From positions 3,175,501 to 3,239,500 of the forward strand of contig NZ_CP150269.1 in assembly GCF_037976825.1 (NCBI RefSeq): DNA of 64,000 nucleotides, in the 5' to 3' direction. This DNA comes from Paenibacillus sp. FSL K6-1330 (GTDB taxonomy: Bacteria; Bacillota; Bacilli; Paenibacillales; Paenibacillaceae). Both the position numbers and the translations under genes were made by a program. Below are positions 31,058-35,305 of the stretch, piece after piece. The first letter of the stretch is position 1, and each line of letters begins with the position of its first letter. The notes beneath the pieces are model-generated. The model saw only the letters and a list, made by a program, of their open reading frames with translations, searched no databases and was not told where the DNA came from.

Positions 31058-31127
31058 TATATAATGAAATTCGTGTCTATAGACATCGCTTTATTTGGAA
31101 TTTACGTCATTTCAGGACATATGTCCT
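31058..31127 (+). promoter_or_regulatory. Promoter with two operator-like palindromes before the DUF606 unit
   Basis: A TATATAAT -10 lies near 31058-31065. The palindromes are TGTCTATAGACA (31074-31085) and AGGACATATGTCCT (31114-31127). They sit downstream of the -10, the position of a repressor site, possibly bound by the YeiL-like protein encoded in the same unit (inference). Confidence 0.45.
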
Positions 31128-31190
31128 TTCCTGAGTTTGGGGAATTCACTTTTAATAGTATACAGACCTATAGAAGAAGGAGTATGTATC

Positions 31191-31616
31191 GTGAGAGGAA
31201 TCTTATTTGCATTCATTGGCGGTGCCTGCATTACGCTGCAAGGTGTGGCCAATGCCCGAATTAGTCAGGATATGGGCACCTGGCAAGCTGCCGCGGTTAC
31301 GCAGTTGACCGGATTTATTATGGCCTTCATTATTCTGCTGTTCGTTCGCGACGGAAGCAGACAAGGATTTGGACAAGTGAAGCCGCTCTATCTAATCGGA
31401 GGAGCCTTGGGGGCACCCATTATATTCAGTGAGGTGACTGCGATTCAGAACATCGGTGTTACATTAACGATATCCGCGTTATTGATCGCCCAGTTATTCT
31501 TAACGTTCCTGATTGACAGCAAGGGATGGTTCGGTGTAGTGAAAAAGAGAATGAGCTTGCCTCAATTCATCGGGATCGGGATGATGATCGCTGGTGTCGT
31601 GATTATCAAATTATAA
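31191..31616 (+). CDS. DUF606 (YdcZ) half-size DMT transporter, first of a pair
   Basis: A 141-residue, five-segment membrane protein (RGILFAFIGGACITLQGVAN at the start). DUF606 proteins are half-size relatives of DMT transporters and often occur as gene pairs that may form heterodimers. GTG 31191 follows GAAGGAG. The second half-size partner is encoded 795 bp downstream on the other side of the YeiL-type regulator. Substrate unknown. Confidence 0.8.
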   Translation: MRGILFAFIGGACITLQGVANARISQDMGTWQAAAVTQLTGFIMAFIILLFVRDGSRQGFGQVKPLYLIGGALGAPIIFSEVTAIQNIGVTLTISALLIAQLFLTFLIDSKGWFGVVKKRMSLPQFIGIGMMIAGVVIIKL

Positions 31617-31668
31617 TGTGAAACCAAGCAGTTCTTGAGATGAAGTGTTCGGGAAAGGAGAGAGGGAC

Positions 31669-32370
31669 GTGAAGGAAATTCATAATGCGGAGCTCATGCA
31701 GCATCTTTTGCTGAGCAACCAGATCCAGTCCGTATTTCACGATGATTTAATGCCTTATCTGGTTTTATATCACTATGATCAGGGCGACATCGTCTGCACG
31801 CAAGGCGAGCCGGCCGATATGCTGTATATCCTGGTTCAAGGGAAGATTAAAATCTTCACGACCTCTGCGGAAGGCAAAGCGCTTGTTCTATCTTTCAAAA
31901 CACCGCTTGAGGTGATCGGAGATATTGAATATATTCAAGGCAATCCGTTGATTAATACGGTACAGGCCGTATCATCTGTCTATATGATCGGCGTGCATTA
32001 TCGCTGGCTTCGCAAATACGGACAGGAGCATCCGCCGCTGCTTCAATTTATGTTGCGGATCATTACGCGGAAATTTTATATTAAATCCAATTTCTTGAGT
32101 TTCAATTTGCTTCATCCGGTGGAGGTACGACTGGCTAGCTATTTACTGTCCGTTTCAGAGGCGGAGTCGGATACGTTCGCTACCAAAAACCCGGCCGCGT
32201 TCAACCTGACCGATATCGCGAATCTGCTTGGAACCAGCTATCGGCATTTAAACCGGGTGATCTTGAAATTCAGTCAGGAAGGGCTGATCGAGCGTCACAA
32301 GGGGTACATTCTGATTAAAGACCGGGATGCGTTAACGAATGTAGCGGGAGGCAATATTTACGAAGAATAA
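31669..32370 (+). CDS. Crp/Fnr-family regulator, YeiL-like
   Basis: A 233-residue regulator with an N-terminal cyclic-nucleotide-like beta roll (YDQGDIVCTQGEPADMLYIL) and a C-terminal winged helix (NLTDIANLLGTSYRHLNRVI). No Fnr-type N-terminal cysteines, so not an oxygen Fe-S sensor of that kind. GTG 31669 follows GGAAAGGAGAGAGGG. It sits between the two DUF606 genes and probably controls them. The YeiL family is poorly characterised, and the ligand is unknown. Confidence 0.85.
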   Translation: MKEIHNAELMQHLLLSNQIQSVFHDDLMPYLVLYHYDQGDIVCTQGEPADMLYILVQGKIKIFTTSAEGKALVLSFKTPLEVIGDIEYIQGNPLINTVQAVSSVYMIGVHYRWLRKYGQEHPPLLQFMLRIITRKFYIKSNFLSFNLLHPVEVRLASYLLSVSEAESDTFATKNPAAFNLTDIANLLGTSYRHLNRVILKFSQEGLIERHKGYILIKDRDALTNVAGGNIYEE

Positions 32371-32410
32371 CACACGGTGATGATGAAACATGAAGTAAGG
32401 GAGATGGAAC

Positions 32411-32869
32411 ATGTTAGCAGGATTGGTATTGGCACTCATCGCGGGTTCAATGGTTAGTTTGCAGAACATTTTCAATAATAGAGTGAATGAGAAGACCGGC
32501 TCCTGGTCTACGACGACGTTGGTGTTAGGCATGGGCTTCGTGGCTTCGTTCGGCATGAGTCTTGCTGTAGAAGGCAAGGGGACGTTCGCCATTCAAAACA
32601 TGGAGCCTTGGTACTGGATTAGCGGGTTGATTGGGGTCGGCGTGGTGATTTGCCTGGTGCAGGCGACAAGGCTGCTGGGTGCCACATTCGCCATTTCGAT
32701 TGTCATGACCTCGCAGCTCGGTTTCGCACTGTTGTGGGACTCCTTGGGATGGTTAGGGCTTGAGAAGGTTCCGTTTACAATGAATCAGTTGATCGGTGTT
32801 CTTGTGATTGTCGGGGGGATACTGGTATTTAAATTAGGCGGGAAACGGGAACAACAAGGGACGGCTTAG
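32411..32869 (+). CDS. DUF606 (YdcZ) half-size DMT transporter, second of a pair
   Basis: A 152-residue, five-segment protein (LAGLVLALIAGSMVSLQNIF). Paralogue of the protein at 31191: both have the G-x-x-x-x-L-Q-x-x-x-N start and the glycine-rich last helix. AAGGGAG precedes ATG 32411. It lies 33 bp upstream of the NUDIX gene, so four genes may share a transcript. Confidence 0.8.
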   Translation: MLAGLVLALIAGSMVSLQNIFNNRVNEKTGSWSTTTLVLGMGFVASFGMSLAVEGKGTFAIQNMEPWYWISGLIGVGVVICLVQATRLLGATFAISIVMTSQLGFALLWDSLGWLGLEKVPFTMNQLIGVLVIVGGILVFKLGGKREQQGTA

Positions 32870-32901: not shown

Positions 32902-33306
32902 ATGATAACGGAGATTGACAAGATCGCCTGGATTCATATCGCGGATGGACGCATATTGGGTGCTCGTTCCAAAGGCAAGGATACGTACTACCTGCCGGGA
33001 GGAAAACGGGAACCGGGAGAATCCGATATCGATACGCTGGTGCGGGAAATTAAAGAGGAGCTGTCCGTTCGAATCAAACCGGAGACCGCGGCGAATGCAG
33101 GCAGCTTCCGGGCTGGCGCTCACGGCAAATCGGAGGGTGTTCGAGTAACGATGTCCTGTTACACGGCGGAGTATGAAGGAGAGCTAAGTGCGGCTTCGGA
33201 AATTGAAGAATTGGCTTGGTTAACGTATAAGGATCGGGATCGGGTCTCTGAGGTTTGCCAGATGATCTTCGATCATCTGCATGAATTGAAGAAGCTGACT
33301 GATTAA
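32902..33306 (+). CDS. NUDIX hydrolase
   Basis: A 134-residue single-domain pyrophosphohydrolase. The NUDIX box is GGKREPGESDIDTLVREIKE then EL, matching G-x5-E-x7-R-E-x2-E-E. AAAGGAGGGG precedes ATG 32902. Acts on nucleoside diphosphate-linked compounds; specificity not predictable. Confidence 0.9.
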   Translation: MITEIDKIAWIHIADGRILGARSKGKDTYYLPGGKREPGESDIDTLVREIKEELSVRIKPETAANAGSFRAGAHGKSEGVRVTMSCYTAEYEGELSAASEIEELAWLTYKDRDRVSEVCQMIFDHLHELKKLTD

Positions 33307-33388
33307 GTCCCGTTGGAGAAGAAGCCTGCATCCAGGCGTCCAACTGCTAAGCGCATTCTATATTCTATACTGGTCCAACGGAAGGATA

Positions 33389-33764
33389 GTACGATTTATC
33401 GTACAAATCTCTTCCAACAGCTGGTATTTGACTCTCAGTTGTGCGATTCTTCGTACAAATTACGTCGGGCTGCCCGTGTTACTCTCGTTTGTACGATTTT
33501 TCGTACAGTCGTTTCATAATGGCCCCCGATGTGCCTGTGTTTATGCGATTATTCGTACAAAAACCACAGTTTGTTCCTGTTAAGCCTCAGATTGTACGAT
33601 TTATCGTACAAATCTCTTCCAACAGCTGGCATTTGACTCTCAGTTGTGCGATTCTTCGTACAAATTTACGTCGGGCTGCCCGTGTTACTCTCGTTTGTAC
33701 GATTTTTCGTACAGTCGTTTCATAATGGCCCCCGTCGTGCCCGTATTTATGCGATTATTCGTAC
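33389..33764. repeat. Regular array of eight short palindromes (51-52 bp period)
   Basis: The 16-bp core GTRCGATTNTTCGTAC, often extended to TTG...CAA, occurs at 33389, 33441, 33491, 33543, 33594, 33646, 33697 and 33749. The fourth and eighth have ATGC at the left arm. Intervals are 52, 50, 52, 51, 52, 51 and 52 bp. Units 5-8 and their spacers are a near-exact copy of units 1-4 (205-206 bp direct duplication). No cas gene is present. Open frames across it are products of the repeat. Confidence 0.9.
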
Positions 33765-33825
33765 AAAAACCACAGTTTGTTCCTGTTAAGCCTCAGTTTG
33801 TTTAATACATCATGCAACAAAAAAA

Positions 33826-33849
33826 GGCGCTCCCGAGGGAGCGTCTTTC
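33826..33849 (+). terminator. Terminator after the palindrome array
   Basis: GGCGCTCCC pairs with GGGAGCGTC and is followed by TTTC. The A run upstream makes it usable on the minus strand as well. It is the nearest terminator for the DUF606-NUDIX unit, so the array may be transcribed. Confidence 0.7.
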
Positions 33850-34057
33850 ATATTTAGAACAAATGTTCGTTTTGTGGGTCATCTAAATTGAATCGGTCGA
33901 TATTCGGCTTTCATATTATTAGTATAGCTCAGCGCTCATTATAAGTCTATATTTTGCCAGGGAAATGTTTTATAGTTTGTAATACCCGGCCGGGGGACGT
34001 GATATATCGTTCGATTTTTAACTGTTGTGCTGCTGCGACATAGAGAGAGGGAGTCTT

Positions 34058-35305
34058 GTGCAAATACGATTATGGGATAACAATTTAAAGGTTAGATTAT
34101 TAGGTGAAGCGCTGTTCAATATGCTGTTTTGGATGTACTTTCCCTTCATAACGGTTTATTTCGGTGCGGCTTTAGGCAATCATATCGCGGGAATCCTCAT
34201 GACGGTTCCTCCGATATTCAGCATTATAGGCAGCTTGCTCGGCGGTGCTTTAGCCGATCGGCTGGGACGTCGCCCCATCATGCTGCTTGGCGCGTCGCTG
34301 CAGACGGTCATGTTTGCGATGTTCGCGTTATCGCCTTCGCACTGGATCGATTATGCCGCTTTTATCGGCATCGGATTCGGGGGAGCCATCTATAGACCTG
34401 CCAGCTCCGCGATGGTAGCCGATCTGGTTCCGGTTCAAGAAAGGCGGCAAGTATTTGCAACGTTTACGACAGCGAACAACTTGGGTGCTGTGCTTGGTCC
34501 GGCACTTGGAGCCATTTTCTTTTTTCAGTATCGGCAAGAGCTTCTGTGGTCATGTTCCTTCGTATTGCTGATCTATTTCATCGCGATTTACTTCATCGTT
34601 CATGAAACCCTGCCGGGGCCTGCCCAAAGTGTAAAGGCAACAGGGTCGATTCTTCAGGTATTCAAGGAACAGTGGAAGGGATATGGCATCATTTTTCGAG
34701 ATAAAGTGTTTCTGGTGTACATACTGGCGGGGATTTTTGCCCTTGTGGCGATCATGCAGCTGGATCTGTATTTGGCGGTATATGTGATCGATTATGTACC
34801 ACCCCAGGCGCTGTTCTCCTGGAACGGACATTCGCTTATGCTATCGAGCACAGAGATATTAGGGTGGGTGCTGGGGCTCAACGGTCTCTTGTTTGTTCTC
34901 TTTATTCTGCCGGTCACCAAGTGGTTTCGGAATTGGAAGGAGCGTGATGTATTCGTACTATCTTCCTTGTTATCCGGAGTAGGTACTTTTGCACTCGGAC
35001 TGAATACGAACATCTGGTTCTTATTCTTTGTAACCATTATTTTTACTTTCGGTGAAATGGCTCGTTCCCCAGTGACGCAAAGCTTTATTAGCCGTTATGC
35101 TCCAGAGCATGCAAGAGGACGGTATATGGGAGCTGACAGCTTACAGTTTACGATCGGAAGATTTCTGGCTCCGATGACGGTATTTCTGTCCACTTGGCTG
35201 CCGCCTATGGGTATATTCAGCATCATCTTGCTATCGGCATTAATCAGTGTGGCGCTGTATATCCTGCTATTTCGAATGTATGTAGAAGAAAAAAGCGCAG
35301 CATAG
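34058..35305 (+). CDS. MFS transporter
   Basis: A 415-residue, 12-segment major facilitator. The loop 2-3 motif GGALADRLGRRPIMLLG is present. GTG 34058 follows GAGAGAGGGAG. It resembles Bacillales drug or sugar-efflux MFS proteins (NIWFLFFVTIIFTFGEMARS then PVTQSFISRYAP is the YfmO/MdtH-like segment). Alone between two terminated units. Substrate unknown. Confidence 0.85.
   Translation: MQIRLWDNNLKVRLLGEALFNMLFWMYFPFITVYFGAALGNHIAGILMTVPPIFSIIGSLLGGALADRLGRRPIMLLGASLQTVMFAMFALSPSHWIDYAAFIGIGFGGAIYRPASSAMVADLVPVQERRQVFATFTTANNLGAVLGPALGAIFFFQYRQELLWSCSFVLLIYFIAIYFIVHETLPGPAQSVKATGSILQVFKEQWKGYGIIFRDKVFLVYILAGIFALVAIMQLDLYLAVYVIDYVPPQALFSWNGHSLMLSSTEILGWVLGLNGLLFVLFILPVTKWFRNWKERDVFVLSSLLSGVGTFALGLNTNIWFLFFVTIIFTFGEMARSPVTQSFISRYAPEHARGRYMGADSLQFTIGRFLAPMTVFLSTWLPPMGIFSIILLSALISVALYILLFRMYVEEKSAA

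What the first reader, a model, noticed from the sequence alone, without database searches (positions are those of the whole stretch)
33389..33764. Phased array of eight short palindromes with a duplicated spacer set
A 16-20 bp palindrome (consensus TTGTRCGATTNTTCGTACAA) recurs eight times at 50-52 bp steps, close to five DNA turns, so all sites face the same side of the helix. Spacers are about 35 bp and unique within the first four units. The last four units copy the first four almost exactly. This is CRISPR-like in layout but has short repeats, duplicated spacers and no cas genes. It may be a cooperative protein-binding array, a chain of 8-bp RNA hairpins in the 3' region of the DUF606-NUDIX transcript, or a family of Paenibacillus interspersed palindromes. 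I know of no described system that fits.
Basis: partly seen in the sequence, partly recalled or inferred. Interest (0 to 1): 0.72.

Follow-up and report, generated by a model that had tools for sequence, protein, structure and literature searches.

The report
Mobile palindrome arrays with matching nuclease
The eight evenly spaced palindromes are one copy of a dispersed, non-coding DNA array of Paenibacillus-like bacteria; elsewhere such arrays sit beside a gene for a nuclease-like DNA-binding protein, and the palindrome changes together with the protein, which points to an undescribed kind of mobile repeat system.

Summary
The window's genome holds at least five arrays of this palindrome at 50-52 bp steps with different spacers; 20 of 392 genomes of the order have it. 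Arrays lie beside a ~229-aa protein whose model matches the catalytic domain of homing endonuclease I-Bth0305I plus a winged helix. Starting from the protein, 70 of 90 loci have phased palindromes, nearly all at 51/52 bp, though only 2 of 15 further, mostly more distant loci do. Subfamilies have their own palindromes (Mantel r 0.75, 0 of 2000 permutations). Spacers are unconserved, but 579 of 647 are 32 nt, and A+T peaks every ~10 bp in phase with the palindrome. Two gene-less arrays are clean insertions relative to relatives. Best reading: palindromes are dimer sites of the cognate protein, and the window array is a dispersed non-autonomous copy. Binding, cutting and mobilisation by the protein are inferred. 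It works like REPIN/RAYT with an unrelated protein; it is not CRISPR.

The parts
33387..33406 (+). palindrome 1
   Evidence: TAGTACGATTTATCGTACAA
33439..33458 (+). palindrome 2
   Evidence: TTGTGCGATTCTTCGTACAA
33489..33508 (+). palindrome 3
   Evidence: TTGTACGATTTTTCGTACAG
33541..33560 (+). palindrome 4
   Evidence: TTATGCGATTATTCGTACAA
33592..33611 (+). palindrome 5 (copy of 1)
   Evidence: TTGTACGATTTATCGTACAA
33644..33663 (+). palindrome 6 (copy of 2)
   Evidence: TTGTGCGATTCTTCGTACAA
33695..33714 (+). palindrome 7 (copy of 3)
   Evidence: TTGTACGATTTTTCGTACAG
33747..33766 (+). palindrome 8 (copy of 4)
   Evidence: TTATGCGATTATTCGTACAA
33385..33590 (+). first four-unit block of the 206-bp duplication
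   Evidence: TRF period 206, 96% matches
33591..33801 (+). second four-unit block of the 206-bp duplication
   Evidence: TRF period 206, 96% matches
33371..33818 (.). stretch that relative G004 lacks (about 40 bp there); ends approximate
   Evidence: pairwise alignment, flanks 87% and 89% identical
32902..33306 (+). NUDIX gene upstream of the array (neighbour, not part of the system)
   Evidence: PF00293, E 1.3e-10; ORF
33820..33849 (+). terminator-like hairpin downstream of the array
   Evidence: read by eye; no terminator scan was run

Best explanation
The window array is a dispersed, non-autonomous copy of a two-part mobile repeat system of Paenibacillus and its relatives. Part one is a ~229-aa protein with an I-Bth0305I-like (EDxHD-type) nuclease fold and a C-terminal winged helix; in the window's genome its gene is at G000:C1:5686576-5687256 (-), beside another array. 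Part two is a tandem array of palindromes. Each palindrome is read by two winged helices (a dimer). Neighbouring sites are five helical turns apart, so the dimers lie on one face of spacer DNA whose A+T content also peaks once per turn and which is therefore probably bent: a regular nucleoprotein array. Arrays change length by copying blocks of units (here ABCD to ABCDABCD) and spread as insertions into DNA between genes, served in trans by the cognate protein, whose gene is often broken or lost later. SHOWN by computation: the array family, its fixed step, the gene-array linkage, the joint change of protein and palindrome, the ~10-bp periodicity, dispersed copies and two clean empty sites. 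INFERRED: that the protein binds the palindromes, cuts DNA, and moves or amplifies the arrays.
Against: No experiment. Linkage weakens in distant members: only 2 of 15 further loci had strict 51/52-bp arrays, and the window genome's two other members have none. 11 of 20 array-positive genomes lack an intact close gene, though G129 and G079 keep a gene piece beside an array. The shared ends of gene-less copies are not at the gene loci compared, so another enzyme may move them. No terminal inverted repeat in the one copy examined and no clear target duplication. Subfamilies 1 and 2 have E-x-M where distant members have E-x-K, so cutting may be lost. The Mantel and Fisher tests do not correct for relatedness; top co-varying columns are not enriched in the winged helix overall (8 of 20 against 52 of 157). 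Foldseek found nothing at E <= 0.001.
Confidence: 0.6

Rival explanations
1. Architecture rather than mobility: the protein is a former nuclease that now organises the chromosome or silences DNA, and arrays are kept because they serve the host.
For: Fixed five-turn step and in-phase A+T suit a structural array; E-x-K is changed to E-x-M in subfamilies 1 and 2.
Against: Patchy presence (20 of 392 genomes for this palindrome), broken gene copies, clean empty sites and a different palindrome in each subfamily look selfish.
Confidence: 0.2
2. Linked, but moved by something else: arrays are binding sites of the protein, while another enzyme recognises the shared ends of the dispersed copies.
For: Gene-less copies in G086 and G007 share a left and a right end which the gene loci compared lack; G021 has arrays but no family member at E 1e-5.
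Against: Gene-less arrays follow the palindrome type of the resident gene, and array presence follows gene presence.
Confidence: 0.12
3. An RNA system: the array is transcribed into a chain of hairpins or guide-like RNAs used by the nuclease, as in CRISPR.
For: CRISPR-like layout; nuclease gene next door; several right ends carry a terminator-like hairpin (by eye); where both arm positions change, 30 of 46 restore a pair.
Against: Double changes are not commoner than expected (46 against 57.7); G.U does not exceed A.C on the gene-sense strand (131 against 285; the bias is the reverse, which would suit the other strand); spacers are drifting copies, not new sequences; spacers show helical A+T phasing; the window array as one query matched no phage or plasmid.
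Confidence: 0.05
4. Passive tandem repeats that merely hitch-hike beside a gene family.
For: Blocks are duplicated as in ordinary tandem repeats.
Against: A fixed step with unlike spacers, helical periodicity, joint change with the protein and matching in trans.
Confidence: 0.03

Closest known systems
REP/REPIN sequences with RAYT (TnpA-REP) genes
   Same: Short palindromes between genes, dispersed without their gene, some in tandem clusters, each palindrome type beside its own gene type (passages of PMC3116915 and PMC3733652).
   Different: The protein here is not an HUH/Y1 transposase by Pfam and has a nuclease fold of another kind; no GTAG/CGTC tag; arrays keep a strict 51/52-bp step; the unit is not an inverted pair.
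EDxHD homing endonucleases (I-Bth0305I)
   Different: A winged helix follows; the gene is found with arrays of palindromes, and I saw no intron or intein (not searched for).
CRISPR arrays
   Same: Short palindromic repeats, spacers of constant length, a nuclease gene nearby.
   Different: Spacers are copies of each other, no Cas1 in the window's genome, the gene is not a cas gene by Pfam.
DUF559 / VSR-like proteins (Pfam PF04480)
   Same: NCBI and JGI names of many relatives; weak profile hits.
   Different: Below Pfam's cut-off (14.6 against 20.6 bits for the one of three proteins that rang).
TnsA of Tn7
   Same: Nuclease domain plus winged helix (recalled); weak Foldseek match, E 1.6e-3.
   Different: Alignment poor (rmsd 15-19); no TnsB-like partner was looked for.

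Membership tests
CRISPR-Cas | cas1 in the genome | tested here: not met
   No PF01867 match in G000; 9 of 22 array-bearing genomes searched have one
CRISPR-Cas | spacers acquired one by one and unlike each other | tested here: not met
   Neighbouring spacers over 70% identical in 53% at lag 1 and 66% at lag 2, random pairs 1.2%; window blocks duplicated
CRISPR-Cas | spacers match phages or plasmids | tested here: inconclusive
   The window array as one 391-bp query: no match at E 1e-3 in either collection; single spacers were not searched
REPIN/RAYT | cognate HUH/Y1 (TnpA-REP) transposase beside the repeats | tested here: not met
   The adjacent protein has no Y1 transposase match in Pfam; RAYT genes elsewhere in the genomes were not searched
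REPIN/RAYT | GTAG or CGTC tag at the foot of the palindrome | tested here: not met
   Flanks of the TTGTACGA palindrome conserve only one A and one T (137 unlike spacers)
REPIN/RAYT | dispersed non-autonomous copies, each palindrome type with its own gene type | tested here: met
EDxHD homing endonuclease | fold of the catalytic domain | tested here: met
EDxHD homing endonuclease | catalytic E, D, H, D residues | tested here: inconclusive
   E57, D71 and H91 invariant, D94 nearly so, in 16 diverse members; superposition on the known active site was not done
EDxHD homing endonuclease | site-specific DNA cutting | not testable with these tools
   needs an assay
DUF559 (PF04480) | Pfam gathering score | tested here: not met
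   14.6 against 20.6 bits in one of three proteins; 22 of 70 members ring at E <= 0.1, best 4e-4
MITE-type non-autonomous transposon | precise insertion at an empty site | tested here: met
   L418 against G001; 7048.9-kb array against G004
MITE-type non-autonomous transposon | terminal inverted repeats and target-site duplication | tested here: inconclusive
   No inverted repeat of 7 bp or more between the outer 62 bp of one copy; no clear duplication by eye

The most novel reading that the evidence does not exclude
A categorically new mobile system: a homing-endonuclease-like protein with a winged helix assembles on tandem palindromes five helical turns apart, bends the DNA between them, and drives amplification of these arrays and their copying to new places in trans. 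Protein and palindrome diversify together into many distinct systems, several per genome, across the Paenibacillus order.
Probability: 0.5. Interest if true: 0.92.

Novelty: categorically new. Interest (0 to 1): 0.86.

Why it matters
It would be a second, unrelated solution to what REPIN/RAYT does, in another phylum. The natural protein-palindrome pairs (66 compared here) are a ready data set for how a winged helix reads DNA. The fixed step and in-phase spacers make an architectural model directly testable. It would also explain a class of CRISPR look-alike arrays. I found no description of it in print, but that rests on text searches of an open-access library only; subscription papers were not searched.

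Tried and rejected
Rfam on 33000-34200: no match to E 1. tRNA genes in the window: none. Text searches for the motif or for DUF559 with repeats: nothing; one search listed four papers, seen as a listing only. One of the 120, L163, labelled Planctomycetaceae, has a single site and no array; it was dropped. Three larger ORF groups near arrays (55, 21 and 57 ORFs) were not followed; the longest ORF of the third is a read-through of an array. Genes such as coaE near some arrays turned out to be shared neighbourhood. Outside the order, 6 of 398 genomes of the phylum sample have the protein; five are of the window's own family, and the sixth, G526 (L352), has no 51/52-bp repeat. Four of 90 gene loci gave no array even relaxed (L232, L280, L289, L299), and some relaxed calls are weak (L231, L259). 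44 of 118 arrays were at locus edges and could not be placed; the other 74 were 19 convergent, 46 tandem and 9 divergent, against 61, 211 and 72 for all gaps over 40 bp in the same loci: a mild lack of divergent gaps, not tested. The gene locus L022 gave no empty site in eight relatives. L418 junctions showed no inverted repeat.

Full report
WHAT IS THERE. The array is as described: eight 20-bp palindromes between 33387 and 33766 at steps of 50-52 bp, the last four units being a 206-bp copy of the first four. It is far from chance in the window (14 both-strand matches against a mean of 0.15 in shuffles). It lies between the stop codon of a NUDIX gene and a terminator-like hairpin (the hairpin read by eye).

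THE FAMILY. The window's genome (7.43 Mb, one contig) has further arrays with the same palindrome and 50-52 bp steps but other spacers, around 3258.1, 4471.0, 5687.4 and 7048.9 kb (7, 11, 11 and 10 sites). A pattern for one and a half units matched 20 of 392 genomes of the order, in 11 of 49 genera, and its reversed control matched no listed genome. In 80 of these loci, 452 of 471 steps are 51-53 bp, 410 exactly 52; the search pattern itself fixed one step per hit. In L052 the loop orientation flips inside an array while the step is kept.

FROM THE PROTEIN BACK TO ARRAYS. Members are found in 292 of 392 genomes of the order at E <= 1e-5. I took 90 loci from that list by place, high-scoring ones first and without looking at arrays. 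70 of 90 have pairs of similar palindromes, two of them (L232, L291) only at other steps. Of 293 pairs 30-82 bp apart, 286 are 50-53 bp apart; a block-shuffled control gave one pair. At a relaxed threshold 86 of 90 have arrays. TRF finds periods of 51/52 or multiples at 55 of 90. In 398 kb of other DNA from 20 of these genomes there were 8 pairs, 4 of them at 51 bp, which are gene-less arrays. Against the rule: of 15 loci from a second search, most of them distant members, only 2 have strict 51/52-bp pairs. Arrays are mostly tens to a few hundred bases from the gene: downstream only at 41, upstream only at 14, on both sides at 15 loci (strict detection, a few spurious pairs included). In the TTGTACGA subfamily they are upstream.

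SPECIFICITY. Half-sites differ by subfamily: TTGTACGA, TGTATGCGA, TGTAATCGG, TGTATGTTG, ACAACGGCA, AGAGAGGTA, AAGGTGCA, TCAAGTAG, TGTGCTGCA and others. Over 66 loci (of 90; loci without a strict array or with a gene piece under 190 aa dropped) protein and half-site distance correlate with r 0.75; none of 2000 permutations reached it, the largest being 0.28. The two most strongly co-varying protein columns lie at the putative recognition helix, but the top 20 columns are not enriched in the winged helix (8 of 20 against 52 of 157). Genes and arrays occur together: 9 of 12 genomes with the subfamily-2 gene have strict TTGTACGA arrays, 11 of 380 others do (Fisher 6e-11; genomes are not independent). 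Of the 11, G129 and G079 keep a gene piece beside an array. In trans: of 12 gene-less arrays fetched from G127 with a TGTAT-type query, 9 carry TGTAC, as G127's own gene array does, 2 carry TGTAT and 1 gave another palindrome; of 8 from G197 and G345, 0 carry TGTAC.

DNA RATHER THAN RNA. 579 of 647 spacers are 32 nt, yet 137 of them are mutually under 60% identical. Over 97 unlike spacers A+T peaks near positions 1, 11, 21-22 and 32, best period 10.2 bp; none of 5000 rotations reached the power at 10.4. Other palindromes show it too (n = 20: 0 of 5000; n = 11: 11 of 5000), though there the best period was 9.0 and 9.2. So a unit is about five helical turns with A+T on one side. In 194 distinct palindromes, changes on both sides of a pair number 46, with 57.7 expected; 30 of the 46 restore a pair. 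That fits half-sites kept separately, as for a protein dimer. On the gene-sense strand G.U pairs (131) do not exceed A.C (285).

MOBILITY. At the window's place relative G004 has about 40 bp instead of about 450. At the 7048.9-kb array G004 has a clean empty site; about 570 bp are inserted after a stop codon (tatC by my own reading) and before a terminator-like hairpin. G004 has no family member and no strict array. In G086 and G007, 11 gene-less copies of 5-17 units were compared: a shared left end in 8 and a shared right end in 10, partial in several; the gene loci compared have neither. One copy is a clean insertion of about 900 bp relative to G001. Two arrays of the window's genome share 40 bp of right end. 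The protein has no match in the phage collection and one plasmid record, a 2.7-Mb replicon.

MECHANISM AND KNOWN SYSTEMS. The best reading is a non-autonomous mobile array served in trans by a nuclease-winged-helix protein that binds each palindrome as a dimer, all on one face. A review says that I-Bth0305I dimerises on a target of nearly 60 bp (PMC3943268, passages), which suits a 52-bp unit. It works like REPIN/RAYT, where palindrome types also sit beside their own gene type (PMC3116915, passages), but it is not a member: the protein and the tags differ. It is not CRISPR. What moves the arrays is not shown; shared ends that the gene loci lack are the main open point.

Noticed in passing
L426:789-869 and many places in G086, G345, G197, G001 and G003: A ~60-80-bp stretch next to the left end of one dispersed copy matches many other places in five of six genomes searched: probably an unrelated abundant interspersed repeat.
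   Followed up: no
G127, whole genome: One search counted 57 matches and one search counted 61 matches to single arrays in G127: a genome with unusually many arrays of this kind.
   Followed up: partly
L352 (G526:C10:10350-10979): A lone relative of the protein (169.7 bits) in a 1.6-Mb genome of the same phylum but outside the order, without a 51/52-bp array.
   Followed up: partly
L357 and L360 (G000:C1:5585318-5585959 and 5595749-5596231): Two further family members in the window's genome without a 51/52-bp array; the second is partial.
   Followed up: partly
window 31095-32869: A Crp-type regulator gene lies between two DMT_YdcZ (DUF606) exporter genes upstream of the NUDIX gene.
   Followed up: no
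L069-L188: 44 of 118 arrays lie at an edge of the fetched locus, several at contig ends: arrays probably break short-read assemblies.
   Followed up: no
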